From NCBI GenBank assembly GCA_902774035.1, contig CACYHA010000012.1, positions 1 to 53,249 of the forward strand: a stretch of DNA of 53,249 nucleotides. The letters run 5' to 3'. Positions 1 to 53,087 of this stretch are shown here, piece after piece. The DNA is from Oscillospiraceae bacterium (GTDB lineage Bacteria > Bacillota > Clostridia > Oscillospirales > Acutalibacteraceae). The notes below the pieces were generated by a model. It was given only the letters and a program-made list of their open reading frames with translations, did no database searches and had not been told where the DNA came from. The position numbers were made by a program, and so were the translations under genes. Each line of letters starts with the position of its first letter. Position 1 is the stretch's first letter.

Positions 1-825
1 AATCCGTACCAGGTGATCGACAACGAAGAAATGGACGAGCTGGTGCAAAGCATCAAAGAGCGCGGGATTCTCACGCCGCTGATCGTGATGCCGAAGCCGA
101 ACGACACACACGTCTTTGAACTCATCAGCGGACACAGGCGGCTGTATGCCGCACAGAAGGCGGGACTTGAAACCGTCCCTGCCATTGTATGCAATGTCAG
201 CCGTGACGAAGCCGCGATCATGGTGGTGGACAGCAATCTGCACCGGGAACATATTTTGCCGAGCGAGAAGGCAAAGGCGTACAAGCTGCGGTTGGACGCA
301 AAAAAGAGACAAGGAAATCGTTCGGATTTAACTTCGTCCCAAGTTGGGACGAAGTTGCGGGCAGACGAAGAACTTGCTCAAATTGCGGGCGAAAGCAGAA
401 ATCAAATTCACCGTTTTATTCGCTTAAATAACCTTGTTCCGGAACTGCAATCTTTGGTTGATGAAAACAAGATTGCTCTTACCCCGGCTGTGGAACTCTC
501 CTATCTCACTGAAGATGAGCAAACCAATTTGCTGGAAACCATCGAGAGCGAAGACTGCACGCCGTCACTCTCCCAGGCGCAGCAGATGCGCAAGCTGTCC
601 GCGCAGGGGCAGCTGGACATGGACGCGGTGTTTCATACGATGACCAAGCCGAAACCCAACCAGCAGGAAAAGGTCACGCTGCCGTATCAAAAGCTGCCGA
701 TAGATAAGATCCGCAACTATGCCAAAACGGAACCGACGCCGCAGATCGTGCAGGACTTTCTTTTGAAAGCTGTGGAGCACTACTGCCGGTATCTTGAGCG
801 GCAGAAGGACAAGGGGGAACGATGA
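1..825 (+). CDS. ParB/Spo0J-type partition protein (5' partial)
   Basis: The reading frame is open from base 1, so the true start lies upstream of the window. The N-terminal part has the ParB/Srx fold signature, including GHRR (about residue 40 of the visible protein) and the DSNLHRE box of ParB proteins. A helix-turn-helix region follows (DEELAQIAGESRNQIHRFIRL, given here only as its position, about residues 121-141). ParB proteins bind parS-like sites and work with a ParA ATPase. Here the gene is followed by small genes, a BRO protein and a serine recombinase, which fits partition of a large integrative element rather than the chromosome. The gene contains a perfect 27-base palindrome at 330-356. 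Family assignment is firm; the role in element maintenance is inferred. Confidence 0.88.
   Translation, partial: NPYQVIDNEEMDELVQSIKERGILTPLIVMPKPNDTHVFELISGHRRLYAAQKAGLETVPAIVCNVSRDEAAIMVVDSNLHREHILPSEKAKAYKLRLDAKKRQGNRSDLTSSQVGTKLRADEELAQIAGESRNQIHRFIRLNNLVPELQSLVDENKIALTPAVELSYLTEDEQTNLLETIESEDCTPSLSQAQQMRKLSAQGQLDMDAVFHTMTKPKPNQQEKVTLPYQKLPIDKIRNYAKTEPTPQIVQDFLLKAVEHYCRYLERQKDKGER
330..356. repeat. Perfect 27-base palindrome inside parB
   Basis: Arms AACTTCGTCCCAA and TTGGGACGAAGTT flank a single central G. The dyad encodes LTSSQVGTK in frame, so it may be a by-product of the protein sequence or a hairpin/operator embedded in the gene. A comparable dyad lies in the BRO gene at 1666-1690. 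Confidence 0.6.
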
Positions 826-965
826 TGTGCCGAGGATTCGCACAATTGCACAAAAACAGGCCGGATGGTAAAATGATTTCAGCAGATCGCTTTCCCTTCC
901 GGCATAATCTTTCCAAAGATTCCCAAAACTATGCGAAGGGAGGTGAAGCGATCGGTGAAAATTGA
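822..965 (+). CDS. Small ORF coupled to parB (47 aa, unknown)
   Basis: ATG at 822 overlaps the parB stop codon (ATGA) and follows a good ribosome binding site (AAGGGGGA, 811-818). The 47-residue product begins MMCRGFAQLHKNRPDG and runs into the start of the next gene, overlapping its GTG start at 955. No family is recognised. The overlap and spacing look like translational coupling, but so short a frame could also be fortuitous. Confidence 0.35.
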   Translation: MMCRGFAQLHKNRPDGKMISADRFPFRHNLSKDSQNYAKGGEAIGEN

Positions 966-1194
966 CTATGTGGAAGAGCCGCTGCGACAGGTGCGTATCT
1001 GGCTGACGCGCGCAGAGGGCAAGGATCAGGCACTCCTGGATTCTCTCAAACCGCGTTATAAGGAGTGGAAAGCGCAGGGCTATTTGCCGGTGGTGTTTGA
1101 ATCGGGCGAAAGCAAGCTGGAAGACGATATGTATCTGCTGCTCAAGCATAACTACGATCTTATGAAGCAACAGCGCCGAGAATGTAACCGATGA
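955..1194 (+). CDS. Small conserved-looking mobile-element protein (79 aa)
   Basis: GTG at 955 is chosen because GGGAGGTG (938-945) lies nine bases upstream; an in-frame ATG at 931 has no ribosome binding site. The product (VKIDYVEEPLRQVRIWLTRA...) is charged and soluble, without signal peptide or membrane segment. I recall similar small proteins beside parB/recombinase genes of clostridial conjugative elements, but cannot name a domain. The last three codons and the stop lie inside the terminal inverted repeat of a MITE-like element (1184-1344), so the C-terminus may have been rewritten by that insertion. Confidence 0.55.
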   Translation: MKIDYVEEPLRQVRIWLTRAEGKDQALLDSLKPRYKEWKAQGYLPVVFESGESKLEDDMYLLLKHNYDLMKQQRRECNR

Positions 1195-1344
1195 CAAACC
1201 CGAGTGTGCAAATCTTGACGGAATATTTTCCGTCATTTTGGACAAAAACCTCTTGAAAGCCGAAAGGCTTCCCGCGAGCTTTTTGAAACATCTGACGAAA
1301 AATCTTCTCGCCAATCTTTACACACTAAGTTTATCATCGGTTAC
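1184..1344. repeat. MITE-like element, family A, copy 1
   Basis: A 161-base non-coding element. The two ends are inverted: GTAACCGATGACAAAC at the left against GTAACCGATGATAAAC (reverse complement of the right end), and the similarity continues inward with mismatches for about 55 bases. The inner part (TCTTGAAAGCC, CATCTGACGAA, TCTCGCCAATCTT) matches copy 2 at 28096-28255. There is no transposase. It overlaps the stop codon of the preceding gene. No clear target-site duplication is visible. Confidence 0.7.
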
Positions 1345-1388
1345 ACGAACGCGAAGCATCGAGATGATGCAGCCGAACAACATTTCAA

Positions 1389-1423
1389 CAGGGATTGACA
1401 TCCCTGTTTACATATGATACAAT
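1389..1423 (+). promoter_or_regulatory. Promoter with overlapping operator dyad, BRO/recombinase operon
   Basis: The -35 box TTGACA (1395-1400) and -10 box TACAAT (1418-1423) are 17 bases apart. A 7-4-7 dyad, CAGGGAT-TGAC-ATCCCTG (1389-1406), covers the -35 box. This arrangement suggests repression of the BRO protein and recombinase genes by a dimeric regulator; the regulator is not identified. Confidence 0.6.
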
Positions 1424-1478
1424 GTTGATGGAAAACATCTAAATTTGAATTAACAATATGTGGAACAGGAGACAAATA

Positions 1479-2363
1479 ATGGAACAAAAAAATTTGCAGA
1501 AATTTGAAAACCAGCCGATCCGCATGGCCTGGGACGAAGAAAAAGAGACATGGTATTTCTCCGTGGTGGACGTGGTCGGCGCACTGACCGATCAGCCGGA
1601 CGCGCGTCACGCGAGCACCTATTGGGCGGTTTTGAAAAAAAGATTGAAATCCGAGGGCGCGGATGAACTGCTTACAAATTGTAAGCAGTTGAAAATGAAA
1701 GCGCAAGACGGAAAAAACCGTTTGACCGACGTTGCCGACACGGAACAGCTTTTGCGCATTGTGCAGTCTGTGCCGTCGCCGAAAGCCGAACCGTTCAAGC
1801 TCTGGCTGGCGCGGGTCGGCAGCGAGCGCATTGAAGAAACCATCGACCCGGAGCAGGCGATCGACCGTGCGCTGGAGACCTATCTCAAAAAGGGCTACAG
1901 CGAGGAGTGGGTGCATCAGCGGCTGCTGGCGATCCGCATCCGCAACGAGCTGACTGAGGAATGGCAGAAACGCGGCGTGGAGAAGGGCAAGGAATTTGCG
2001 ATCCTGACCGACGACATCACCAAGGCGTGGTCGGGCATGACCACGCGGCAATACAAAAATCTCAAAGGACTCAAAAAAGAAAACCTGCGCGACAACATGA
2101 CCGACACCGAACTGGTGCTGACCATGCTCGCTGAAGCGTCCACGCGTGACATTTCTAAAGCGGAGCATCCCGCGGGGTTCGATGAGAGCCGCTCGGTGGC
2201 GCAGCGCGGCGGCAAGGTTGCAGGCACCGCTCGCCAGGCGCTGGAAGCGGAAACCGGACAACCTGTTGTCACGGAGAAGAACGCATCGCAGCTCGGCCTT
2301 TTGATGAGCGACCTGATCGAAGCCGTGGCGCACGAGCTGCCGAAAAAGGAGGAGGACACATGA
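1479..2363 (+). CDS. BRO-N family protein (phage antirepressor-like)
   Basis: ATG 1479 is preceded by CAGGAGA at the right distance; an upstream in-frame ATG at 1458 has none. The 294-residue product has an N-terminal BRO-N domain (about residues 10-115: IRMAWDEEKETWYFSVVDVV, then the LTDVADTEQLLRIVQSVPSP stretch). This domain is found in phage antirepressors and baculovirus BRO DNA-binding proteins. The C-terminal half is charged and helical. The stop overlaps the recombinase start (ATGA), so the two are co-translated. A role in controlling the element or its excision is inferred from that coupling. Confidence 0.8.
   Translation: MEQKNLQKFENQPIRMAWDEEKETWYFSVVDVVGALTDQPDARHASTYWAVLKKRLKSEGADELLTNCKQLKMKAQDGKNRLTDVADTEQLLRIVQSVPSPKAEPFKLWLARVGSERIEETIDPEQAIDRALETYLKKGYSEEWVHQRLLAIRIRNELTEEWQKRGVEKGKEFAILTDDITKAWSGMTTRQYKNLKGLKKENLRDNMTDTELVLTMLAEASTRDISKAEHPAGFDESRSVAQRGGKVAGTARQALEAETGQPVVTEKNASQLGLLMSDLIEAVAHELPKKEEDT
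1666..1690. repeat. Perfect 25-base palindrome inside the BRO gene
   Basis: Arms AACTGCTTACAA and TTGTAAGCAGTT flank a single A. It encodes LLTNCKQL in frame. It resembles the parB dyad at 330-356 in design (12-13 base arms, one central base) but not in sequence. Confidence 0.6.
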
Positions 2364-4528
2364 CCGAAACATTCAACATCGCCGCCTACTGCCGCATTTC
2401 GGTGGACGACGAGAAAGAGAATGAGAACACGTCGATTGAAAACCAGAAGTCGATCATCAGCGACTATGTTTCGCGCACCTTTCCCGGTTCGGAGCTGACC
2501 TTTTTTGAGGATCGCGACCGCAGCGGCTATACCTTTGCGCAGCGCGAAGGCTATCAGCGGATGCGCCCGCAGCTGCTCTCCGGCCGATATGACATTCTGA
2601 TCGTCAAGGATCTTTCCCGCTTTTCCCGGCGGAACGGCCATGGACTGGTGGAGCTGGAAACCCTGCGCGACGCCGGGGTGCGCATCATCGCCATCGGTGA
2701 TTCCATCGACTACCCGACGAACGACGACTGGCTGCGCATCCAGATCTACTTCTTCGTCAACGAAATGCCCGTGACCGATACCTCCAAAAAGGTGAAGAAC
2801 GTCATCAAGCGGCGGCAGGAGGAGGGCAAATGGATCTGCTCCGTGCCTTACGGCTACGTCATCACGAACAGCAAGACCGGCGCGTTTGCAGTTGAGCCAA
2901 GCGAGGCAGCCGTGGTGCAAAAGGTGTTTGATCTGTATCTTGAAGGTTGGGGCTATCAGAAGATCGCAAACTACCTGACCGAGCAGCACATTCCGACGCC
3001 GCGCATGAATGAGCGCGCCCGGATCGAAGCCAGCGGCGGGGTCTATCACCGCAAGGTAAAGGACACCTGGAGCATCGTGACCATTCAGGGAATCCTCTTC
3101 AACGATTTCTATATCGGCACGCTGCGGCAGGGCAAATACACACGCAAAAAGATCAACGGCGACGACGTGCGAAAAGACGCAAGCGAACACATCGTCTTTG
3201 AAAACCACCATGAACCGATCATCGACTACCGCACGTTTGCGATCGCGCAGGGGATGCTGCAAAAGCGCTCCACCGACCATTACCGCGGCGTCAAGAAGTA
3301 TGACAATATCTATTCCGGCTTCATGGTCTGCGGCGACTGCGGCAGCCCGATGTTCCCCATGAGCCGTCCGGGCGGCAACGACGCCTACCGCTGCGGCACC
3401 TATCACCGAAGGGGGCGCAAGGCCTGCAGCAGCCACTTCATCAAGGTCGCAACGCTGGATGAGCTGCTGAAGGGCTACCTGCAGAGCGTACGTGAAACCA
3501 GCGCGGAGATGATGAAAAAGCTGGAACGGTCCATCACCGACGAAAAGAAAACCCTGAAAGCCCAGACCGACGCTGCCGCGCGGTTGGAGGATCTGCTGGC
3601 GGACGCCATCGGCGAGCGGGCGATCCTTTCGCGGCAGATGGCGCGGGAGATCATGCGCAGCCCGGAAAAGGAAGCGCTGATCGAGACGACCTATGAAACC
3701 CTGCTGGGTGACTGCGACAAGCGCATCGAGGGGCTGCAGAATCAGATCGCGCTGACGCACGACAAATACAACACCGTCATCCGCGTCAACCGCATCGCCA
3801 AAGAGACGATCGCCATTCTGGACAACATTCTTGATAAGAACAAGCTCGACCGGAACGACTTGGAATTCCTGCTGGAACGCATCTTTGTCTTTGAAGATCA
3901 CATCCATGTCAAGCTCAAAAGCGACATCGAATCCATTCTGCAAAGCGGCGCACTGCCGGAAGAAACGGAGGCCACCGTAAATTTTAATTCAGGCGTCATA
4001 AACAGCTTGCACACGGTCATCGTCCAGCGCACAGAAAAGCGCGAGGACAAGGTTTATGACGTCAATGTTATCAGCAGCGGAGACCCGCTGGAGATTTACA
4101 CCGATGCCCAGGGCGAAGTGATCTTCAAAAAATACAGTCCCATCGGGGAGCTGGAGCCATACACCAAGCAGTACGCCGAGGTGCTTTACCGCACCACGGG
4201 TCTGCCGGTGGTGATCTGCGACCGGGACCACGTGATCGCGGCGGCCGGCGTTTCCAAAAAGCAGGTGCTCGATAAGCGCATCTCGCCCGAGCTGGAGACC
4301 GCCATGGAATATCGCACGACCTATCTCGCGACCCCGGGCGGCCCGGTGTTGCCCGTTTGCGAGGACGCGGACAAGACCGCGGCGGTCATGGCGCCGATCC
4401 TCGGCGGGGGCGACGTGATGGGCGCGGTGCTGGTGCTCTGCGGCGACACGCAGACCCCGGTCGGCCCCACGGAGGAAAAGCTCGTGCAGGTCGCGGCCGG
4501 CTTCCTCGGCAAACAGATGGAGGAATAA
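2360..4528 (+). CDS. Large serine recombinase fused in frame to the SpoVT C-terminal domain
   Basis: Residues 1-573 form a large serine recombinase. The resolvase domain carries YCRIS with the nucleophile serine and DLSRFSRR; a recombinase domain follows, then a zinc ribbon near residues 323-350 (CGDC and two later Cys) and a coiled coil about 375-470. From Gly574 the sequence switches to stage V sporulation protein T: GDPLEIYTD, EVIFKKYSPIGEL, a GAF-like domain (LPVVICDRDHVIAA), ending AAGFLGKQMEE. That is 149 residues against 178 in B. subtilis SpoVT, so about 29 residues, the AbrB-type DNA-binding domain, are missing. The simplest reading is that this is the right end of an element that integrated at about codon 30 of spoVT. 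Whether one long fusion protein is made is unknown. Confidence 0.85.
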   Translation: MTETFNIAAYCRISVDDEKENENTSIENQKSIISDYVSRTFPGSELTFFEDRDRSGYTFAQREGYQRMRPQLLSGRYDILIVKDLSRFSRRNGHGLVELETLRDAGVRIIAIGDSIDYPTNDDWLRIQIYFFVNEMPVTDTSKKVKNVIKRRQEEGKWICSVPYGYVITNSKTGAFAVEPSEAAVVQKVFDLYLEGWGYQKIANYLTEQHIPTPRMNERARIEASGGVYHRKVKDTWSIVTIQGILFNDFYIGTLRQGKYTRKKINGDDVRKDASEHIVFENHHEPIIDYRTFAIAQGMLQKRSTDHYRGVKKYDNIYSGFMVCGDCGSPMFPMSRPGGNDAYRCGTYHRRGRKACSSHFIKVATLDELLKGYLQSVRETSAEMMKKLERSITDEKKTLKAQTDAAARLEDLLADAIGERAILSRQMAREIMRSPEKEALIETTYETLLGDCDKRIEGLQNQIALTHDKYNTVIRVNRIAKETIAILDNILDKNKLDRNDLEFLLERIFVFEDHIHVKLKSDIESILQSGALPEETEATVNFNSGVINSLHTVIVQRTEKREDKVYDVNVISSGDPLEIYTDAQGEVIFKKYSPIGELEPYTKQYAEVLYRTTGLPVVICDRDHVIAAAGVSKKQVLDKRISPELETAMEYRTTYLATPGGPVLPVCEDADKTAAVMAPILGGGDVMGAVLVLCGDTQTPVGPTEEKLVQVAAGFLGKQMEE
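4065..4090. other. Predicted attachment junction (element / spoVT)
   Basis: Homology changes from recombinase (KVYDVNVISSG) to SpoVT (GDPLEIYTD) around 4070-4085. The crossover dinucleotide should lie near the GGAGAC at 4079-4084, because large serine recombinases exchange at a 2-base core. The matching left junction, with the first ~29 codons of spoVT, would lie upstream of this window. The exact point cannot be fixed from one end. Confidence 0.6.
4079..4528 (+). pseudogene. spoVT: spoVT 3' fragment (SpoVT C-terminal GAF-like domain)
   Basis: This is the chromosomal part of the fusion gene. In B. subtilis SpoVT is an AbrB-type regulator of forespore genes; its C-terminal GAF-like domain is thought to bind a ligand. 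Here the domain is complete and uninterrupted but has lost its DNA-binding half and its own start. It could be restored by precise excision of the element. Confidence 0.75.
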
Positions 4529-9947: not shown

Positions 9948-9962
9948 ACAGAAACAAACAGG

Positions 9963-9993
9963 GAGCCGTCTCGGGAAAGGCGGCTCTTTTTTT
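9963..9993 (+). terminator. Terminator
   Basis: GAGCCG(tctcgggaaagg)CGGCTC followed by TTTTTTT. It ends the permease/propeller unit and abuts the structured element at 9994. Confidence 0.85.
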
Positions 9994-10140
9994 CGCACGG
10001 CTGCGCCGTGCGAAACGCGGCGGCGGGATCGCGCAGCCCGGGCTGCGCGAAAAAGGCGCGGATGTCCGCGCCTTTTTGCCTCGTGCAGATGCACGAGGCA
10101 TCCCGCCGCCGCCTTTTTGCGCAGCGAAGCTGCGCAAAAA
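9994..10140. repeat. Five-hairpin four-way-junction element, copy C1
   Basis: Hairpin a: CGCACGGC/GCCGTGCG (9994-10012). An outer 13-base stem (10017-10029 with 10100-10112, GCGGCGGCGGGAT/ATCCCGCCGCCGC) encloses three arms without a single unpaired junction base: b 10030-10049 (perfect palindrome), c 10050-10077 (13-base stem, TG loop) and d 10078-10099 (9-base stem). Hairpin e, 10114-10140, has a 12-base stem and GAA loop. It fills the gap between convergent genes. Copies C2 and C3 have the same plan with different but pairing bases. Confidence 0.8.
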
Positions 10141-25840: not shown

Positions 25841-27712
25841 ATGAACAAAAAGCAAAAACAGACGCTGGTGCGCATCCTCATCACGGCGGCGGTGTTCGCC
25901 GTTTTGCTGGCGCTGCAGCTCGTCGGCGTTCTGAAGGGCTTGCCGAACCTTGCGGTCTTTGCGCTGTATCTGCCGCCTTATCTTCTGATCGGTTATGATG
26001 TTCTGCGCAAGGCCGGGCGCAACATCGTGCGCGGCAACGTGTTTGACGAAAACTTTTTGATGAGCATCGCAACGCTGGCGGCCTTCGCGCTCGGTCTGTT
26101 CGGCGAAGCGGAATATCCGGAGGCCGTGGCGGTCATGCTGTTCTATCAGGTCGGCGAGCTGTTTCAGAGCTGCGCCGTCGGCCGTTCGCGCAAGAGCATC
26201 GGCGATCTGCTGTCGCTGGCGCCCGAAACGGCGAACCTCATCACGGAAAGCGGCGTGGAAACCGTTGACCCCGACGAGGTGGAGATCGGCGCGCGTATTC
26301 TTGTCAAGCCCGGCGAAAAGGTTCCGCTGGACGGCACGGTGCAAAGCGGCAGCGCCTACCTTGACACGGCGGCGCTGACCGGCGAATCTGTGCCGCGGCT
26401 TGCGCAGCCGGGCGACGCCGTGATCAGCGGCTGCGTTGTGGCGGATGCGCCGCTGACGGTCGAAGTCACGCGCCGCTACGAGGATTCCACCGTTGCCAGA
26501 ATTCTGGAAATGGTGGAAAACGCCACCAACAAAAAAGCAAAGCTCGAAAACTTCATCACGCGCTTTGCGAAATACTATACGCCGTTTGTGACCCTCGCCG
26601 CAGTACTGCTGGCGCTGCTGCTGCCGCTGGCGTTTCATACATCCTGGGCGGACGGCATCCGCCGCGCCTGCAATTTTCTGATCGTCTCGTGCCCCTGCGC
26701 ACTGGTGATCTCCGTACCGCTGGGCTTTTTCGGCGGCATCGGCGCGGCCTCAAGGATCGGCGTGCTGGTCAAGGGCTCGAACTTTCTGGAGGCCGTCGCA
26801 AAAATGAACGTGCTGGCCATGGATAAGACCGGTACCCTCACACACGGCAGCTTTGCCGTGCAGGAGATCCTGCCGGCCGAAGGCCGGAGTGAAACCGAAC
26901 TGCTGCGCCTTGCCGCCCTCGGCGAAAGCTGCAGCAACCACCCGATCGCGCTCGCTTTGCGCGCCCGATATGGGGAGCCGCTCGACGCCTCTGCCCTCGG
27001 CGAGATACGCGAACTGGCCGGACAGGGCGTTCGCGCGGCCGTCAACGGGCAGCCATTGCTGGTGGGCAACGCGAAACTGCTCGCAGAGCACGGCGTGGAC
27101 TTTACGCCCTGCGACACGGCTGCAACGGTGGTTTACGTTGCGCTGAACGGCAGCTTCTGCGGCGCGATCCTGATCGGCGACACGGTGAAGCCGGGCGCAA
27201 AAGCGGCGCTTTCCGCGCTGAAACGCAGCGGCGTCGGCGAAACCGTGATGCTCACCGGCGACCGAAAGGCCGCGGCGCTGGCCGTGGCGGAAGCCGTCGG
27301 CGTGGACACCGTACAGGCGGAGCTGCTCCCGGCGGACAAGGTTGCCGCCGTGGAAGCGCTGCTGCAGAGCAAGGCGCCGGGTACGGCGGTCGGCTATGTC
27401 GGCGACGGACTCAACGACGCGCCTGTTCTCATGCGCGCCGACGTGGGCTTTGCCATGGGCGCCCTCGGCGCGGACGCCGCGATCGAGGCGGCGGACATCG
27501 TGCTGATGGACGACGACCTCGGCAAGCTGCCACGCACGGTCGCCATCGCCCGCAAAACGATGGGCATCGTCAAGGGCAACGTCGCGTTTGCCTTGGCGGT
27601 CAAGCTGGCGATCCTTGTCCTGAGCGCTTTCGGTCTCGCGTCCATGTGGATGGCCGTTTTCGGCGATGTGGGCGTGGCGGTGCTTTGCATTCTCAACGCG
27701 ATGCGCAATTAG
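25841..27712 (+). CDS. cadA: P1B-type heavy-metal-exporting ATPase (Cd/Zn/Pb class)
   Basis: 623 residues. Actuator TGES, transmembrane metal site SCPCALVISVPLG (CPC), phosphorylation motif DKTGTLTHG, nucleotide-binding HP in NHPIALAL, TGDRKAAA and GDGLNDAP hinge. The final TM carries a conserved Asp (FGDVGVAVL), typical of Zn/Cd/Pb pumps. No N-terminal metal-binding domain. It exports toxic divalent metal and is probably induced through the ArsR-like regulator upstream. Confidence 0.92.
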   Translation: MNKKQKQTLVRILITAAVFAVLLALQLVGVLKGLPNLAVFALYLPPYLLIGYDVLRKAGRNIVRGNVFDENFLMSIATLAAFALGLFGEAEYPEAVAVMLFYQVGELFQSCAVGRSRKSIGDLLSLAPETANLITESGVETVDPDEVEIGARILVKPGEKVPLDGTVQSGSAYLDTAALTGESVPRLAQPGDAVISGCVVADAPLTVEVTRRYEDSTVARILEMVENATNKKAKLENFITRFAKYYTPFVTLAAVLLALLLPLAFHTSWADGIRRACNFLIVSCPCALVISVPLGFFGGIGAASRIGVLVKGSNFLEAVAKMNVLAMDKTGTLTHGSFAVQEILPAEGRSETELLRLAALGESCSNHPIALALRARYGEPLDASALGEIRELAGQGVRAAVNGQPLLVGNAKLLAEHGVDFTPCDTAATVVYVALNGSFCGAILIGDTVKPGAKAALSALKRSGVGETVMLTGDRKAAALAVAEAVGVDTVQAELLPADKVAAVEALLQSKAPGTAVGYVGDGLNDAPVLMRADVGFAMGALGADAAIEAADIVLMDDDLGKLPRTVAIARKTMGIVKGNVAFALAVKLAILVLSAFGLASMWMAVFGDVGVAVLCILNAMRN

Positions 27713-27850: not shown

Positions 27851-27991
27851 TGCGCACGGCCCTGCCGTGCGCAGGCGGCGGCGGAACCGCGCGGCCCGGG
27901 CCGCGCGAAAACGAAGCAAGGCTTCGTTTTGAACCGTGTCCTGCACGGTTCGTTCCGCCGCCGCCTTTGCCGCGCAGCGAAGCTGCGCGGC
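27851..27991. repeat. Five-hairpin four-way-junction element, copy C2
   Basis: Same plan as C1. Hairpin a 27851-27873 (TGCGCACGGC/GCCGTGCGCA). Outer 14-base stem 27874-27887 with 27952-27965 (GGCGGCGGCGGAAC/GTTCCGCCGCCGCC). Arms b 27888-27907, c 27908-27930 (10-base stem) and d 27931-27951 (8-base stem) lie back to back with no unpaired junction base. Hairpin e 27969-27991, GAA loop. Arms c and d have sequences unlike C1 but pair perfectly. It lies between convergent cadA and GH20 genes. Confidence 0.8.
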
Positions 27992-28095
27992 AGCAGAAGG
28001 AAGCGCCGAGAAAATCTGCGGAAGGAGCCCCAACAGCGCTTTCTTTTTCGTTTTGACGTTTTTCGCGGAATGCAACAGTTCCGCTTTTCATTTTA

Positions 28096-28255
28096 GTAAT
28101 CACTGATTTACGCAGGCGTAAAAATCTTAGCGGCAAGTTTTCCGTCATTTTGCACAGAGATCTCTTGAAAGCCGTCAGGCTTTCAAGAGATCTCTGTAAC
28201 ATCTGACGAAGAATTTTCTCGCCAATCTTCGCACGCTGTGTTGATCAGCGATTCC
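28096..28255. repeat. MITE-like element, family A, copy 2
   Basis: 160 bases. The left end GTAATCACTGATTTACGCAG and the reverse-complemented right end GGAATCGCTGATCAACACAG are imperfect inverted repeats of about 55 bases. The centre is a perfect 20-base stem (28154-28173 with 28178-28197, loop GTCA). The core matches copy 1 at 1184-1344. It ends two bases from the GH20 stop codon. No T-run follows the stem on either strand, so it is not a classical terminator. Confidence 0.7.
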
Positions 28256-28256
28256 T

Positions 28257-29753
<1,497 letters not shown>

Positions 29754-29763
29754 CGGTTCCACC

Positions 29764-37230: not shown

Positions 37231-37345
37231 GCGGCGGGACCGCGCGGCTTCGCCGCGCGCAAAGGGGCGCGCAGGCGGCGTACCGGTAAAATCAAACCTG
37301 TGTCTGCGCGCCCCTTTTGGCCCGTGCGCAGCACGGGCGTCCCGC
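37231..37345. repeat. Four-way-junction element, variant copy C3
   Basis: Outer stem GCGGGAC/GTCCCGC (37334-37340 numbering does not apply; arms are 37234-37240 and 37339-37345). Arm b 37241-37259 (CGCGCGGC/GCCGCGCG, TTC loop). Arm c 37261-37317 has a 14-base stem and a long ~29-base loop. Arm d 37320-37338 (GCCCGTGC/GCACGGGC). The junction stays compact, but hairpins a and e of C1/C2 are missing. It lies between the jag terminator and the GH78-like gene. Confidence 0.7.
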
Positions 37346-40092: not shown

Positions 40093-40304
40093 GGGGCAGT
40101 TGCATTTCGCGAAAAACGTCAAAGCAAATATAAAAAGAAAGCGCTTTCCGCAGACTTGTTCTGTGAAGATAGCGCTTTCTTAACTTTTTGTTCTCTAAAG
40201 TAGTAGGATTATTTGCTTTGACTCGACGTTTTTTCGCCCTCGGCGTACTTTTGTACAGCCTTCGGTCGAAGAAAACGCCGTTTTCATCCAAATGCAACAG
40301 CCCC
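40093..40304. repeat. MITE-like element, family B, copy 1 (212 bp)
   Basis: The ends are GGGGCAGTTGCATTT and AAATGCAACAGCCCC. The left half forms a hairpin with arms AAGAAAGCGCT/AGCGCTTTCTT. The right ~65 bases (CGACGTTTTTTCGCCCTCGG and following) are identical to copy 2 at 52859-53070 and fold into a long imperfect hairpin with GTAC-TTTT-GTAC at its tip. No coding capacity. Little else lies between 40013 and 40325. Confidence 0.8.
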
Positions 40305-40325
40305 TATTTCTATGTTTTTTCATGC

Positions 40326-41597
40326 TTAAATCGCGTTGATCATTTCCATGATCCGCAGCACATAGGCCGGGCCTTCCGGGTTCGGACGGAAGACGTTGCC
40401 CTCCAGTACGAGATGGGCGCCGTGATAGGTCGGGAAGATATAGTATTTCCCGGTGGCGAATGTTCCGGCGAGGGCGGGGGAGGGCTGAGAAGCGACCTTC
40501 TCCTGCGGCGCCGTAAAGGGCGCGGTCTCCGAGATCGTGTTGGCAAGGCCGTCGTTCGGGCCCCAGCTTGTATCCATGACGATGCCGCCTTTGGTCGTGG
40601 TGTTCGTGCGGCCGAGCACGGGCATCAAAAGGGTGAACACAAAGTCGTCATTCTTTTTGTCCGCCACAAGATGTCCGTCTTTTTCGTCGGGCATGGTGCC
40701 GTCGTGGGGTACGGAGAAGTAATAGACATTGTCCAGCGTGCGGATCTGCGTTTTGTTGATCTGCGCCATATGATCGGGATCCATGTCATAGATCGCGGTA
40801 TCCGGGTCAGCGACCTCGCCGCTGGCAACCTTCTTCATGGTCTTGACCACGCTGCGGATCGTCTGCTTGAGCATCAGTCTTGTGCCGGGGCCGATCCATT
40901 TGCGGCTGTCCAGTCTGCCGGAAAGATAGTCGCCTGTATCCTGAACCGCTTGGGCGCAGACCGGCAGCGAGGAGCCGTTGAAGACCGCCGCGAGGCCGGT
41001 GACGGAATAGATCCAATCGGGTTTGCCGCCCTTGAACAGGTCGGAAAGCGTGCCGTCGGTCGTGGCGTCGATCTCGGCCTTTACGCCGTCGGCGAGCATC
41101 GTTGCGAGCATGGTGGAGGTCGGGCCGCCGAGAGAATGGCCGATCAGGTTGATCTTGTGCTTGCTGTCCCAGCGCTTCAGCAGGGCTTTTCCGGTGTAGT
41201 CCTTGCCGTAGCGGTCATGGCCGCAGGCTTCGGAATGGGCTTTGCCGTAGTCCACGCGGGCGCCGACAAGCTGGGCGTACAGCTCGCAGACCCGATCCCA
41301 GATGCTGCCGAAGGGCGCAATCGTCACGGCGGCGCAGTCATAGCCTTCGGCGCGGAAGGCCTTCATCATGTCGCCGTTGAAGAAGCCCCAGTAGGGCAGC
41401 GTCTTATAGGCTTTGTGCTCCTCGCCCCAGCCGAAAAAGCCGTGGACGAAGACATAGGTGTAGTTGGTGCGGTCCTTTTCGTGGGAGGCCTCGAGCTGCA
41501 GCTCCTTCGCCGGAAGAACAAAGCTCAGCGCGACCGCCAGCGCGAGGATGCCCGCCCAGACTTTTTGAAAAAGATAGGTCAAATAATCGAAATGCAT
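40326..41597 (-). CDS. Lipase family I.5-like hydrolase, array gene 4 (last)
   Basis: 423 residues. MHFDYLTYLFQKVW then a TM or signal-anchor (about 14-30). The hydrolase part follows Geobacillus/Staphylococcus lipases: FVHGFFGWGEE, RVDYGKAHSEACGHDRYGK (zinc-ligand His121 and His127 positions), LIGHSLGGPT (Ser155), DPDTAIYDMDPD (zinc Asp region), GPNDG (catalytic Asp) and GAHLVLEG (catalytic His). It is the most divergent of the four: its acyl-pocket region and C-terminus differ from the others. Confidence 0.82.
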   Translation of the reverse strand: MHFDYLTYLFQKVWAGILALAVALSFVLPAKELQLEASHEKDRTNYTYVFVHGFFGWGEEHKAYKTLPYWGFFNGDMMKAFRAEGYDCAAVTIAPFGSIWDRVCELYAQLVGARVDYGKAHSEACGHDRYGKDYTGKALLKRWDSKHKINLIGHSLGGPTSTMLATMLADGVKAEIDATTDGTLSDLFKGGKPDWIYSVTGLAAVFNGSSLPVCAQAVQDTGDYLSGRLDSRKWIGPGTRLMLKQTIRSVVKTMKKVASGEVADPDTAIYDMDPDHMAQINKTQIRTLDNVYYFSVPHDGTMPDEKDGHLVADKKNDDFVFTLLMPVLGRTNTTTKGGIVMDTSWGPNDGLANTISETAPFTAPQEKVASQPSPALAGTFATGKYYIFPTYHGAHLVLEGNVFRPNPEGPAYVLRIMEMINAI

Positions 41598-41603
41598 GGA
41601 TAC

Positions 41604-41653
41604 CCCTCTGTTCACTGTTCACTGTTCACTGCTCACTGTCCACTGCTCACTGC
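41604..41653. repeat. Heptamer repeat (TGTTCAC/TGTCCAC) between lipase genes
   Basis: About six tandem 7-base units of TGTTCAC, TGCTCAC and TGTCCAC. Read on the minus strand (CAGTGAGCAG...), it provides the stop codon of lipase gene 3 and lies just upstream of lipase gene 4. Boundaries are uncertain by a base. Confidence 0.65.
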
Positions 41654-42930
41654 TCCAGCGCATTGACCATTTCCATCACATGCAGCAGATAGGTCGGGCC
41701 GTCAAGCTGGGGACGCGAAAAATCGCCGATGATCCAGGTGTGGGAGCCGCGGATCGTGGGAAGGATGTTGTAAACGCCGCGTTTGGCTTCGGCGGCAACC
41801 TTCGGCGAGGCGGGGCCGGAAAGTTCGTTGGTCGGTGCGCCGAAGGGGGCGCGCTGCGAGATCACGTTGACACAGCCGTCGTTTTCCTGCCAGCTTTCGT
41901 CCAGTACCAGCCCGCCGTCGGTGACGGTGTTTGTGCGGCCGAGGACCGGCGTGAGCGCACCGATGATCGGGTCGGCGCATTTGTTGTCCATCATGATGTG
42001 ACCGTCGATTTTGCTGCGGACGGAGTCGTCAAAGACCAGCGAGAAGTAATAGACGTTCTTCAGCGTTGCGATGTCCTTGTTCATGGCGATCGCGTTGTCG
42101 GGCGTCATGTCATAGATCGCGGTGTCCGGGTCGGCCACGTCGCCGCTGGTCATGTGCGCCAGCATGACGGCGCGCAGCTCAAAGTAGCGCTTGGCCAGAG
42201 AGCGGATGCCGAGCGGCAGATATTTGATCTCGTCGATCTGCGCCTGCACAGCGTTCTTTGTGTCGCGGATGGCCTGCTTGCCGGAAAACAGCGAGGTGCC
42301 GTTATAGACCGCCGAAGCGCCGACGCAGGCGTGGATCCAGTCGCCTTTGCCGCCTTTGAACAGCTCGGAGAGGGAACCGTCGGTGGTGGCTTCCCGTTCG
42401 GCCGCGGAGCCATTGGCAAGAAGGCTGGTCAGCATGATGACGTTTCTGCCGCCGAGCGAATGGCCGATCAGGTTCACCTTGTGCTTGCTGTCCCATTTGT
42501 CCAGCAGGGCTTTGCCGGTGAAATCCTCGCCGTAGCGGTCGTGGCCGCAGGCTTCGGAATGGGCTTTGCCGTAATCCACCCGGGTGCCGGTCAGACGCGC
42601 GTAGGCTTCGCAGCAGCGATCCCAGACGCTGCCGGCAGCGTCCATGGTCGGCGCGGCGATGATGTAGCCCGCTTCGCGGTAGCCCTTGATGGCGTCGCCG
42701 TTGAACATGCCCCAATGCGGCATGCCCTGATAGGCGTTGAGGTCTGCGTCTTCGTTCCAGCCGAGAAAGCCGTGCAGCAGCACAAACGGATAGTTGGTCT
42801 TGTCGGCGCTGTGGTCTGCGTCAAAATGGATCTTTTTCTGCAGCCCGGAAAAGAGCGAAAGAAAGATGAACGCAGCAATCATAAACGCACTGACTCTGCG
42901 GATGAACCAGGTCATGTAATCGAAATGCAT
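41647..42930 (-). CDS. Lipase family I.5-like hydrolase, array gene 3
   Basis: 427 residues. TM anchor about 13-30. YPFVLLHGFLGWNED, RVDYGKAHSEACGHDRYGED (His124, His130), LIGHSLGGRN (Ser158), DPDTAIYDMTPDNAIAMN, DESWQENDGCVNVIS (catalytic Asp in NDG) and GSHTWIIG (catalytic His). All triad and putative zinc ligands are kept. The stop lies in a heptamer repeat. Probably co-transcribed with genes 2 and 4, given gaps of about 50 bases. Confidence 0.85.
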   Translation of the reverse strand: MHFDYMTWFIRRVSAFMIAAFIFLSLFSGLQKKIHFDADHSADKTNYPFVLLHGFLGWNEDADLNAYQGMPHWGMFNGDAIKGYREAGYIIAAPTMDAAGSVWDRCCEAYARLTGTRVDYGKAHSEACGHDRYGEDFTGKALLDKWDSKHKVNLIGHSLGGRNVIMLTSLLANGSAAEREATTDGSLSELFKGGKGDWIHACVGASAVYNGTSLFSGKQAIRDTKNAVQAQIDEIKYLPLGIRSLAKRYFELRAVMLAHMTSGDVADPDTAIYDMTPDNAIAMNKDIATLKNVYYFSLVFDDSVRSKIDGHIMMDNKCADPIIGALTPVLGRTNTVTDGGLVLDESWQENDGCVNVISQRAPFGAPTNELSGPASPKVAAEAKRGVYNILPTIRGSHTWIIGDFSRPQLDGPTYLLHVMEMVNALEQ

Positions 42931-42956
42931 AGGAATCCCCTCTGTTTAAATGGCTT

Positions 42957-42982
42957 TTACTGTCCACTGTTTACTGTTCACT
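42957..42982. repeat. Heptamer repeat between lipase genes 2 and 3
   Basis: TTACTGTCCACTGTTTACTG then TTCAC: 7-base units of the TGTCCAC/TGTTTAC type. It supplies the TGA of lipase gene 2 (minus strand). Confidence 0.6.
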
Positions 42983-44261
42983 TCTCTAACGCATTGATCA
43001 TTTCCATGATGTGCATCAGATAGGTCGGGCCGTCGAGCTGTGGGCGCACAAAGTCGCCGATGATCCACATGTGGGTGGCGTGGATGGTCGGCAGGATGTT
43101 GTAGACCCCGCGCTTTGCCTCGTGCGCGATCTTCGGCGAAGCGGGACCGGAAAGGTCGTTGGTCGGCGCACCGAAGGGGGCGCGCTGCGAAATGGTGTTG
43201 ACCATACCGTCGTTCATCTGCCAGCTTTCGTCCAGCGCGATGCCGCCGTCCGTCACGGTGTTCGTGCGGCCGAGCACCGGGGTGAGCGCACCGATCACCG
43301 GATCGGCGACCGTGCGGTCCATCATGATGTGGCCGTCGACCTTACTGTAGGCCACGTCTTCAAAGACGGCGGAGAAGTAATAGATATCCTTGGCTGTGAC
43401 GAGATCCTTGTTCATGGCGATCGCGTTGTCGGGCGTCATGTCGTAGATCGCGGTGTCGGGGTCGGCCACATTGCCGCTCGTCATGCTGGCGAGCGTTGCG
43501 GCGCGGACCTCCCAATAATCCTTGACCAGCGTGCGCACGCCGAGCGGCAGATACTTCGTTTCGTCAATCTGCTTTTGCAGGGCGTTCTTCGTGTCGCGGA
43601 TGGCCTGCTTGCCGGAAAACAGCGAGGTGCCGTTATAGACCGCGGAGGCGCCCACACAGGCGTGGATCCAGTTGCCCTTGCCGCCGGTGAACAGGCCGGA
43701 CAGCGAGCCGTCGGTCGTGGCGTCGCGCTCGGCTTTGGAGCCGGCGTCAAGCAGGCTCGCGAGCACAATGACGTCCTTGCCGGCTTGGGAGTGCCCGATC
43801 AGGTTGATTTTGTGGCTGCTATCCCATTTGTCCAGCATGGCCTTGCCGGTGTAATCCTCTCCGTACCGGTCGTGGCCGCAGGCTTCGGCGTGTGCTTTGC
43901 CGTAATCCACGCGGGTGCCGGTCAGCTTTGCGTAGACCTCGCAGGCGCGGTCCCAGTTGCTGCCGCCGGCGTCGACTGTCGGGGCAACGCAGAGGAAGCC
44001 CGCCTCGCGGTAGCCTCTCAGACAGTCGCCGTTGAACATGCCCCAATAGGGCATCCCCTTGTAGGCGCCGTTTTTGGCGTCTTCGTTCCAGCTCAGGAAG
44101 CCGTGCATCATCACAAAGGGATAGTTGGTCTTGTCGGCGCTGTGGTCGGCGTCAAAATGCGGGTGTTTCTGCAGCCCGGAAAACGGGATCAGCAAGACAA
44201 AGATCGTGAGAAAGAATGCGTTGAATTTGCGAACGAACCAGGTCATGTAGTCGAAATGCAT
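42978..44261 (-). CDS. Lipase family I.5-like hydrolase, array gene 2
   Basis: 427 residues. Very similar to gene 3: MHFDYMTWFVRKFNAFFLTI anchor, RVDYGKAHAEACGHDRYGED, ATHMWIIG. The nucleophile elbow is GHSQAGKD, so the usual Gly after Ser-x is Ala (Ser158). ATG 44261 follows GAGAGGGGAAA; upstream in-frame starts lack a site. It is separated from gene 1 by a terminator, so it needs its own promoter. Confidence 0.84.
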   Translation of the reverse strand: MHFDYMTWFVRKFNAFFLTIFVLLIPFSGLQKHPHFDADHSADKTNYPFVMMHGFLSWNEDAKNGAYKGMPYWGMFNGDCLRGYREAGFLCVAPTVDAGGSNWDRACEVYAKLTGTRVDYGKAHAEACGHDRYGEDYTGKAMLDKWDSSHKINLIGHSQAGKDVIVLASLLDAGSKAERDATTDGSLSGLFTGGKGNWIHACVGASAVYNGTSLFSGKQAIRDTKNALQKQIDETKYLPLGVRTLVKDYWEVRAATLASMTSGNVADPDTAIYDMTPDNAIAMNKDLVTAKDIYYFSAVFEDVAYSKVDGHIMMDRTVADPVIGALTPVLGRTNTVTDGGIALDESWQMNDGMVNTISQRAPFGAPTNDLSGPASPKIAHEAKRGVYNILPTIHATHMWIIGDFVRPQLDGPTYLMHIMEMINALEK

Positions 44262-44319
44262 GACAGTTTCCCCTCTCTCGGCAACCGATAGTATCATCGG
44301 CCGCCTTGTTTATTTTCAG

Positions 44320-44350
44320 TAAAATCCCACCGTAGAAGAAGCGGTGGGAT
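44320..44350 (-). terminator. Terminator after lipase array gene 1
   Basis: Minus strand: ATCCCACCG and CGGTGGGAT form the stem, followed by TTTT. It separates array gene 1 from genes 2-4. Confidence 0.7.
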
Positions 44351-44379
44351 CCTGCTGTTGTTCAAATTCGCTTTGCGCG

Positions 44380-45654
44380 TCAGATGGCGTTGATCATCTC
44401 GAACAGATCGACAAGGTAGTTCAGACCGTCCGTCTGCGGCTTGACAAAGTCGCCGATGGGCCACATGTGCGAGGCACGCACGGTGGGCAGAACATTGTAG
44501 ACGCCGGGCTTGATCTGCTTCGCGGTCGCCGCGCTGGGGCCGGCGGTCAGATTGTTGACCGGGGCGCCGAGGGGCGCGATCTGAGAGATCACGTTGGCGC
44601 AGCCGTCGTTGGCCTGCCATTTTTCGTCGAGCACCAGACCGCCTTCGGTCACGGTGTTCGTGCGGGCGATGATCGGCGTCAGGCCGCCGATGACCGGGTC
44701 GGCAACGGAGTTGTCGGTGACGATGTGGCCGTCCGCAGCCTTTTTCGTGTCGTCCTGCACGTGAGAGATGTAATACACGCTCTTCACGGTGGCGATCTCC
44801 TTGTTCATGGCAACGGCGTTATCGGGCTGCATATCATAGATCGCGGTGTCGGGATCCGCGATATCGCCGCTCGTGATGTTCTCCAGAACCTTGACCATGC
44901 CGTCCAGAATGCCGTAAACGACCTTGCGGCTGCCGAAACGCAGGAACTTATACTGATTGAGCTGGCTCTTGAGATATTCGCCGGAATCATGCACGGCCTG
45001 GTGGTTGACAAACAGCGTGGTGCCGTTATACACCGCGGCAAGGCCGGTGCAGGTGTGGATCCAGGCAGCTTTGCCGCCGGTGAAGAGACCGGAGATGGAT
45101 CCGTCCTTGGTGGCCTTCTTTTCGGCCTTGGAGCCTTCCGCCATCAGGGAGGTGAACAGGATCACATCTTTGCCGGCAAGGGAGTGACCGATAAGGTTGA
45201 TCTTGTGCTTCTTGTCGAATTTTTCCAGCATGGCTTTGCCGGTGTAGTCCTCGCCGTAGCGCTCATGGCCGCAGGCCTCGGAATGGGCCTTGCCGTAGTC
45301 CACACGGGTGCCGGTCAGCTTTGCGTAAAGTTCGCAGGCGCGGTGCCAGTTGCTGCCTGCCGGGTCAAGCATCGGCGCAACGCAGGTGTAGCCCGCTTCG
45401 CGGTAGCCGGCAAGGGCGTCGCCGTTGAGCATGCCCCAATACTGCATGCCCTTGTAAGCGTTGTTCGGCGCGTCTTCGTTCCAGCTCTGGAACCCGTGGA
45501 TCATCACGAAGGGATAGTTGGTCTTGTCAGCAGAATGGTCTGCCTCAAAGTGCAGCGGCTTTTTGAGCTGGGAAAGCGGAATCAGCAGCACAAAGACCGC
45601 GAGGATGAATGCATTGAACTTGCGGATAAACCAGGTCAGATAATCAAAATGCAT
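44380..45654 (-). CDS. Lipase family I.5-like hydrolase, array gene 1 (first)
   Basis: 424 residues. MHFDYLTWFIRKFNAFILAV anchor, YPFVMIHGFQSWNED, RVDYGKAHSEACGHERYGED (zinc-type His pair), LIGHSLAGKD (Ser158, elbow with Ala), DPDTAIYDMQPDNAVAMN, DEKWQANDGCANVIS and ASHMWPIG. Family I.5 lipases are normally secreted; these are probably held at the membrane by the N-terminal segment. AAGGAG lies upstream of the ATG, and a good promoter at 45691-45719. Confidence 0.85.
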   Translation of the reverse strand: MHFDYLTWFIRKFNAFILAVFVLLIPLSQLKKPLHFEADHSADKTNYPFVMIHGFQSWNEDAPNNAYKGMQYWGMLNGDALAGYREAGYTCVAPMLDPAGSNWHRACELYAKLTGTRVDYGKAHSEACGHERYGEDYTGKAMLEKFDKKHKINLIGHSLAGKDVILFTSLMAEGSKAEKKATKDGSISGLFTGGKAAWIHTCTGLAAVYNGTTLFVNHQAVHDSGEYLKSQLNQYKFLRFGSRKVVYGILDGMVKVLENITSGDIADPDTAIYDMQPDNAVAMNKEIATVKSVYYISHVQDDTKKAADGHIVTDNSVADPVIGGLTPIIARTNTVTEGGLVLDEKWQANDGCANVISQIAPLGAPVNNLTAGPSAATAKQIKPGVYNVLPTVRASHMWPIGDFVKPQTDGLNYLVDLFEMINAI

Positions 45655-52846: not shown

Positions 52847-52858
52847 AGGGCAGATGCA

Positions 52859-53070
52859 GGGGCTGTTGCATTTCGCGAAAAACGTCAAAGCAAATAAAAG
52901 AAAAAGCGCTTTCCACAGAGTGATTCTGTGATTTCAGCGTTTTCTTTTCTTTGTGTTTTTTCTAAAAAGTAAGATTTTTTGCTTTGACTCGACGTTTTTT
53001 CGCCCTCGGCGTACTTTTGTACAGCCTTCGGTCGAAGAAAACGCCGTTTTCATCTAAATGCAACAGCCCC
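52859..53070. repeat. MITE-like element, family B, copy 2 (212 bp)
   Basis: Perfect 15-base terminal inverted repeats, GGGGCTGTTGCATTT and AAATGCAACAGCCCC. Same length as copy 1. The right part, from CTTTGACTCGACG to GCCGTTTTCATC, is identical to copy 1 while the left hairpin (CACAGA/TCTGTG here) has diverged. The GGGGCTGTTGCA ends look like IS6-type termini, but no transposase is present. Confidence 0.82.
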
Positions 53071-53087
53071 TTGTGTGTTGCTCGGTT

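What the first reader, a model, noticed from the sequence alone, without database searches (positions are those of the whole stretch)
9994..10140. A repeated DNA element that folds into a perfect four-way junction
Seen: an outer 13-base stem encloses three hairpins placed end to end with zero unpaired junction bases, and two more hairpins flank it: five stems in 147 bases. The same plan recurs at 27851-27991 and, reduced, at 37231-37345. I know of no named bacterial repeat with this exact geometry. It could act as a cruciform (Holliday-like) in DNA or as a structured RNA between convergent genes.
Basis: partly seen in the sequence, partly recalled or inferred. Interest (0 to 1): 0.85.

Follow-up and report, generated by a model that had tools for sequence, protein, structure and literature searches.

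The report
Mobile four-way-junction repeats at gene ends
One bacterial genome carries dozens of copies of a short, apparently mobile DNA repeat that folds into a near-perfect cross on either strand and mostly sits where genes end, perhaps acting as a two-way stop for transcription; relatives keep the cross shape while changing the letters.

Summary
The unit (hairpin; stem enclosing three back-to-back hairpins; hairpin) is a dispersed intergenic repeat: 76 places in this genome, with similar capped match numbers in two sister species. Covariation is strong. A second family with the same four-way core and no BLAST similarity occurs at 25 places in another congener, 24 of 25 folding. Shape is kept, sequence is not.

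G·U pairs are rare (0.7-1.5%, 3.4% in the second family, against 10.9% in 11 tRNAs), as expected if both strands must fold. Copies lie at gene ends, often convergent. In G000, 26 of 54 abut a terminator-like hairpin by a relaxed test, 12 of 54 by a strict one; the sisters show no such excess in the relaxed test. The middle arm often looks like a bidirectional terminator. At 8 of 12 syntenic sites sister species lack the element.

Best reading: genus-restricted mobile palindromic repeats acting as two-way transcription-end elements. Movement and termination are inferred. No REP tag, target duplication, linked transposase or Rfam match was found. A DNA cruciform role is not excluded.

The parts
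9960..9993 (+). intrinsic-terminator-like hairpin and T-run of the upstream + strand gene, directly abutting H1
   Evidence: sequence and fold; this copy was not scored because its fold parse exceeded the size cut
9994..10012 (.). copy 1, flanking hairpin H1 (9991-10015, 11 bp, if outer T/A pairs are counted)
10017..10028 (.). copy 1, outer stem P0, 5' arm (13 bp in the RNA parse)
10029..10050 (.). copy 1, junction hairpin P1
   Evidence: covariation
10051..10076 (.). copy 1, junction hairpin P2: G+C stem framed by A-run and T-run, shaped like a terminator on both strands
   Evidence: criterion applied to other copies, read by eye here
10077..10100 (.). copy 1, junction hairpin P3
   Evidence: covariation
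10101..10112 (.). copy 1, outer stem P0, 3' arm
10114..10140 (.). copy 1, flanking hairpin H2, followed by an A-run
27851..27992 (.). copy 2: H1, four-way core (27873-27966), H2; between convergent called genes 25841-27712 (+) and 28257-29762 (-)
37234..37345 (.). copy 3, degenerate: core only, enlarged P2, no H1/H2; between tandem + strand called genes

Best explanation
A genus-restricted family of small (about 150-160 bp) palindromic intergenic elements that spread like MITEs or REPs and sit mostly at the 3' ends of genes, in this genome often right behind an existing intrinsic terminator. What is preserved is the shape: a stem closing three contiguous hairpins, a four-way junction, in the G000 clade usually flanked by one more hairpin on each side. 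The middle arm P2 is in more than half of the copies an A-run/T-run hairpin, which could terminate transcription from either side. I think it most likely works as a portable bidirectional transcription-end element: RNA from either strand folds one arm, then P2, and polymerase stops, while the other arms make a very stable 3' end. Shown: repetition, shape conservation with covariation, a second family of the same core shape, location at gene ends, and presence/absence between sister genomes. Inferred: active movement, termination, the enzyme that moves it, any extrusion as a DNA cruciform.
For: Copy number: 76 places in G000; 83, 80 and 78 two-strand matches in G000, G018 and G028 with 87 candidates scored each, 0-4 in the other 31 of 34 congeners at E 0.01; the three form a clade at 99/99 in an rpoC tree of 24 genomes. 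Shape: a three-branch junction in 36 of 36 copies folded, 29 with zero unpaired bases (5 of 41 hits dropped first as truncated or partial). Covariation: 32 of 63 pairs changed on both sides in 26 rows, 0 of 500 shuffles. Second family: 25 places, only in G002 of 34 genomes; 24 of 25 fold to the junction; 24 of 53 pairs changed on both sides, 0 of 500 shuffles. Both-strand constraint: G·U in 34 of 2312 core pairs in G000 against 25 of 229 in 11 tRNAs. Place in G000: 28 convergent, 24 tandem, 3 divergent gaps with an element against 10, 29, 15 without. Abutting terminator in G000: 26 of 54 copies, 29 of 108 sides against 51 of 540 shuffled; strict test 12 of 54 copies, 4 of 324 shuffled sides. 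P2 A-run/T-run: 31 of 54, 12 of 15, 12 of 18; P1 and P3 none. No element in a sister at 8 of 12 syntenic sites.
Against: 23 of 54 G000 copies lack the A/T-run in P2. Where a terminator already precedes the element, a second looks redundant. The terminator excess is a G000 result: by the relaxed test 3 of 15 G018 and 2 of 18 G028 copies, 4 of 30 and 2 of 36 sides against 15 of 150 and 16 of 175 shuffled. In G028 tandem gaps the core is no nearer the upstream gene's end (median 334 against 328). The second family shows no consistent flanking hairpins in the 22-nt flanks folded. No target-site duplication, no linked transposase. Presence/absence cannot tell gain from loss, and in an earlier, biased set 6 of 7 sites did have a junction in the sister. 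No expression data exist here.
Confidence: 0.5

Rival explanations
1. DNA-level cruciform element: the double strand extrudes into a four-way junction under supercoiling and serves as a supercoil sink or as a binding site for a junction- or gyrase-type protein. (This and the other readings overlap; the confidences are not exclusive.)
For: Contiguous junction in the fold; G·U near absent, which a cruciform also predicts; enrichment between convergent genes.
Against: P2 carries A/T-runs in more than half of the copies, which a cruciform does not need. Extrusion of four-arm structures in vivo is not shown; no junction-binding partner was searched for.
Confidence: 0.25
2. Purely selfish palindromic MITE: the element only moves and persists, and the matched arm changes come from templated correction of imperfect palindromes at replication rather than from selection.
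For: Dispersed, differing between species, and in G018/G028 embedded among other repeats. Near-complete double changes with few G·U intermediates are what template-switch correction (recalled mechanism) would give.
Against: Correction would repair each hairpin but does not by itself explain why three hairpins stay contiguous inside an outer stem in two families without sequence similarity, nor why the A/T-run falls on the middle arm only.
Confidence: 0.3
3. A structured non-coding RNA or mRNA 3' stabiliser read from one strand.
For: Strong covariation and gene-end location.
Against: G·U 0.7-1.5% against 10.9% in tRNAs, though the stems are also richer in G+C than the tRNAs; both orientations to the flanking genes occur (for example L010 and L011); no Rfam match in the window but a tRNA; loops vary.
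Confidence: 0.1
4. REP/BIME elements moved by a RAYT (Y1 transposase).
For: Palindromic, dispersed, between convergent or same-direction genes like REPs (abstract and passages of PMC3733652).
Against: No GTAG/GTGG or CGTC tag near hairpin ends in 87 copies. Y1 matches: G000 2, G018 3, G028 1 weak, and 4 each in G001, G014 and G029, which have no R1 match. No junction in four Y1 stretches scanned.
Confidence: 0.04

Closest known systems
EFAR elements of Enterococcus (De Gregorio et al. 2009)
   Same: Palindromic, Firmicutes, dispersed, listed as a MITE (passage of PMC3733652). The Efa-1 family, which I take to be the same, is described as a pair of adjacent stem-loops, intergenic (passages of PMC2267715), and Efa elements as inserted near 3' ends of genes (passage of PMC1590033). 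Recalled only: about 170 bp, integration at stem-loop targets.
   Different: Two stem-loops rather than three inside a stem; no sequence comparison was made. The 2009 paper was not in the library and was not seen.
REPs/BIMEs (GTAG and CGTC families)
   Same: Many intergenic palindromes, mostly between convergent or same-direction genes (PMC3733652).
   Different: 20-40 bp units with a terminal tag and GT stem pairs often observed, read there as a sign of RNA function; here no tag, few GT pairs, a fixed multi-helix plan.
Bacterial MITEs (Correia/NEMIS, ERIC, RUP, bcr1, SPRITE)
   Same: About 100-200 bp, non-coding for the most part, stable stem-loops, intergenic (passages of PMC2229807 and PMC10969869).
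   Different: Most described ones fold as an end-to-end stem-loop (PMC2229807) and carry terminal repeats and target duplications from a donor IS; duplications were not found here and a donor was searched for only among Y1 genes.
Bidirectional intrinsic terminators
   Same: P2 has a stem between A-run and T-run in more than half of the copies.
   Different: Ordinary ones (recalled) are single hairpins, not embedded in a dispersed multi-helix unit.

Membership tests
REP (GTAG/CGTC) | unpaired GTAG/GTGG or CGTC tag beside the stem | tested here: not met
   0 of 87 copies, in the 8 nt outside each flanking hairpin found or, for GTAG/GTGG, at the core ends
REP (RAYT-moved) | RAYT gene flanked by the repeat | tested here: inconclusive
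   Y1 matches do not track the element over 34 genomes; no junction in four Y1 stretches, but the main G000 one lies at a contig end and other Y1 loci were not scanned
MITE | short, non-coding, dispersed in many copies | tested here: met
   76 places in G000; 150-160 bp; one of 91 fold-scan hits in the clade lay inside a called gene
MITE | target-site duplication | tested here: not met
   direct repeats of 3-7 nt no commoner than in re-paired flanks, 61 of 87 copies testable; exact ends uncertain
MITE | terminal inverted repeats | tested here: inconclusive
   an outer stem, mostly T-run with A-run, encloses H1, core and H2 in 10 of 36 folds; a longer GTGCGCTTTT-type stem was read by eye in some G018/G028 copies
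MITE | donor transposon with the same ends | tested here: inconclusive
   only Y1 genes searched for genome-wide; other transposase families not searched
EFAR-type stem-loop-targeting repeat | integration at stem-loops (recalled) | tested here: inconclusive
   26 of 54 G000 copies abut a terminator-like hairpin, no excess in the sisters; the sister gaps inspected hold a terminator-like hairpin by eye; no same-species empty site
Rfam RNA families | match to a covariance model at gathering score | tested here: not met
   only a tRNA found in the window
Intrinsic terminator | hairpin followed by T-run | tested here: met
   P2 in 31 of 54 G000 copies, by the composition of its ends; not met in the other 23; function not testable here

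The most novel reading that the evidence does not exclude
Shape, not sequence, is the inherited identity of these elements: a class of mobile DNA recognised or maintained as a four-way junction (possibly by a structure-specific, Holliday-junction-like enzyme), able to replace its sequence completely within a genus while keeping three contiguous hairpins inside one stem, as the families without sequence similarity in the G000 clade and in G002 suggest.
Probability: 0.25. Interest if true: 0.85.

Novelty: new variant of a known kind. Interest (0 to 1): 0.62.

Why it matters
The bacterial palindromic repeats I could read about are mostly single hairpins or pairs. A dispersed repeat with a contiguous four-way junction, kept by compensated change, with few G·U pairs, and present with different sequences in one genus, is a natural test case for whether DNA or RNA shape alone can be a unit of selection or mobility. 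It also offers a concrete class of candidate portable two-way terminators. Copies at contig ends (at least six G028 matches begin within 25 bases of one) suggest that it breaks short-read assemblies, so copy numbers are floors.

Tried and rejected
REP/RAYT link: looked for, no support. Single-strand RNA: disfavoured by G·U rarity. Viral carriage: the core pattern has no exact match in viral contigs. Over the genome collection it matched 30 stretches, 28 from two species and 2 single ones in unrelated phyla that I take for chance (the tool may leave out the window's own records). Wider spread: model R1 over 295 genomes of the order finds only the own genome at 1e-5, but under strict filters and with 10 candidates scored per genome, so weak relatives would be missed. 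A fold scan of 367 kb from other genera finds no strict junction; one loose hit in real sequence, one in shuffled. In one search, 6 of 59 relatives matched; the G041 match (L042) did not fold to the junction.

The first exact-match scanner was brittle: strict form found something in 23 of 37 G000 loci, some of which hold only fragments. The fold-based scan that replaced it gave 10 hits against 0 shuffled in 672 kb; two (L107, L164) have a large nested middle arm and look like coding sequence, and I discount them. Three of those stretches (L100, L101, L113) were chosen because a model hit lay in them.

Target duplications: none beyond re-pairing. Order of the outer hairpins: 31 copies have the usual order by motif, 4 the reverse (L033, L179, L180, L188); most of the remaining copies could not be classified and a few gave mixed labels. 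Orthologous cores, five hand-picked pairs: 190 unchanged, 6 double Watson-Crick changes, 2 one-sided changes from G·U to G-C, 2 mismatches, 7 gapped; with the outer hairpins included there are many more mismatches where those hairpins do not align. The genes behind one search come from a home-made codon scorer, not a standard gene finder. for the sisters: G018 9 convergent, 7 tandem, 0 divergent gaps with an element against 9, 37, 21 without; G028 6, 9, 1 against 4, 28, 8. The rpoC tree puts two partial rows (G005, G021) on an implausibly long branch. Left out of alignment A1: 10 of 36, by eye, mostly for a missing or atypical flanking hairpin, a flipped core or divergence (for L028 I recorded no such reason); of A3: 1 of 25 (L272, no junction). 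Cores over 135 nt by fold parse were left out. Literature: nine searches (two listed nothing) showed no title or start of abstract that I recognised as this geometry; the library holds open-licence papers only.

Full report
What is there. At 9994-10140 a single strand folds into H1, a stem P0 closing three hairpins P1-P2-P3 without a spare base, and H2. Copy 2 repeats this; copy 3 is a decayed core. The DNA and RNA parses of copy 1 differ by one pair at the junction, so a one-step branch migration is possible. In 10 of 36 copies folded, an outer stem, mostly T-run with A-run, closes H1, core and H2 into a second four-way junction.

It is a dispersed repeat. BLASTN with copy 1 gives 50 two-strand matches in the genome. 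From these I took 40 places plus copy 3; five truncated or partial ones were dropped, and the 36 others all fold to a three-branch junction, 29 with zero unpaired bases. A covariance model from 26 of them gives 130 two-strand matches, 76 places after merging; the search scored 150 of 3431 candidates, so this is a floor. In 34 congeneric genomes, with 87 candidates scored each, the matches number 83 (own), 80 (G018) and 78 (G028), and 0-4 elsewhere. The three are one clade in an rpoC tree of 24 genomes. Equal contig lengths identify G018 with record RUG13829 (Ruminococcaceae bacterium) and G028 with RGIG3704 (Clostridia bacterium, goat rumen).

The shape is conserved. On 26 rows, 94.9% of cells pair, 32 of 63 pairs change on both sides, and none of 500 shuffles reaches this; sliding the partner destroys it. 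The alignment is by sequence, but the structure was drawn from its own rows, which favours it. In five hand-picked orthologous pairs the cores show 6 double Watson-Crick changes, 2 one-sided changes from G·U to G-C and 2 mismatches. At the copy-1 site both sister species carry a junction element between the same convergent genes, with other arms and, by motif read by eye, the opposite core order.

A second family has the same core plan. A fold scan of other congeners turned up junctions of different sequence. One, queried by BLAST, occurs at 25 places in G002 and in none of the other 33 genomes (25 of 44 G002 candidates scored). Of the 25 copies, 24 fold to the junction, 23 with 0-2 unpaired bases and one with 6; 24 of 53 pairs change on both sides, 0 of 500 shuffles. 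It shows no consistent flanking hairpins in the short flanks folded. G002 lies elsewhere in the tree. Shared descent with complete sequence turnover and independent origin cannot be told apart here.

Both strands appear to matter. G·U makes up 34 of 2312 core pairs in G000, 9 of 650 in G018, 5 of 724 in G028 and 43 of 1248 in the G002 family, against 25 of 229 in 11 distinct tRNAs found in the DNA held. The stems are richer in G+C than the tRNAs, so part of the difference may be composition. A G·U on one strand is C·A on the other, so rarity fits a structure needed on both: a DNA cruciform or a two-way RNA element. In REPs the opposite was noted and taken as a sign of RNA function (PMC3733652 passages). 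Templated correction of palindromes could also give it.

Where it sits. In G000, gaps holding an element are 28 convergent, 24 tandem and 3 divergent; gaps of 60 bases or more without one in the same stretches are 10, 29 and 15. In tandem gaps the core is nearer the upstream gene's end in 16 of 24 (G018 6 of 7, G028 6 of 9). By a relaxed test a terminator-like hairpin with T-run abuts the outer hairpin in 26 of 54 G000 copies (29 of 108 sides, 51 of 540 shuffled); a strict hairpin test within 60 nt gives 12 of 54 (4 of 324 shuffled sides), with distances of 0-1 in eight of twelve. In G018 and G028 the relaxed test shows no excess; the strict one gives 4 of 15 and 1 of 18 copies. The middle arm P2 is framed by A-run and T-run in 31 of 54, 12 of 15 and 12 of 18 copies, P1 and P3 never; in the 24 rows of the G002 alignment P2 shows them by eye.

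Does it move? Of 22 G000 copies drawn at random, after setting aside 12 loci already compared or partly compared and those with too little flank, 20 had a convincing match in a sister genome. Twelve have both flanks aligned in at least one sister, 21 comparisons in all; a junction was found in 6 of 21, at four of the twelve sites, and at eight sites in none. Five of the eight are compact gaps (L010, L009, L037, L179, L182), as is L181 in G028; the wider gaps at L186, L031 and L023 are less certain. The compact gaps I looked at, all but L037, hold a plain terminator-like hairpin. In an earlier set, biased because sister stretches were fetched around their own elements, 6 of 7 G000 sites had a junction in the sister, one of them recognised only by eye from its fold. 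This shows turnover, not its direction. No duplication flanks the copies, and the one transposase family searched genome-wide, Y1, does not follow the element. A Y1 gene and an IS110-like gene (named by recall from its sequence) share a G000 contig end with no junction nearby.

Reading. The best account is a mobile palindromic repeat that ends transcription from both sides. The rivals, which overlap with it, are a DNA cruciform and a purely selfish element. Membership: not a REP by tag; MITE in size and dispersal but without shown ends, duplication or donor; nearest in spirit to EFAR, whose stem-loop targeting I recall and could not read. Papers seen: PMC3733652 (outline, abstract, passages), PMC2229807, PMC10969869, PMC1590033 and PMC2267715 (passages).

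Noticed in passing
window 1184-1344 and 28096-28253: A second dispersed repeat of about 160 bp: the truncated list shows 34 matches in G028, 14 in G018, 8 in G019 and 1 in G015. One window copy lies about 100 bases beyond four-way copy 2.
   Followed up: no
window 40099-40305 and 52858-53071: Another repeated module with an AGGGGCTGTTGCATTT-type end, 97% identical over 104 bases; the same end sequence borders several four-way copies such as L005, L006 and L015.
   Followed up: partly
window 1-4524: 89-93% identical to G018 while the next syntenic stretches are about 76-79% identical: possible recent exchange.
   Followed up: no
window 40326-45654: Four consecutive related genes of about 425 codons on the - strand (repeat families D1-D7; gene calls); the first matches Pfam Lip_C.
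   Followed up: no
L207:16380-16960 and related G018/G028 loci: Upstream of several four-way copies lies a mosaic of other short repeats, pieces of about 30-330 bp at 78-98% identity, shared among many sites.
   Followed up: partly
L043:1381-1576 = L113:3778-3973 (G019): A junction of different sequence whose middle arm is enlarged, inside a very long (42-pair) outer stem.
   Followed up: no
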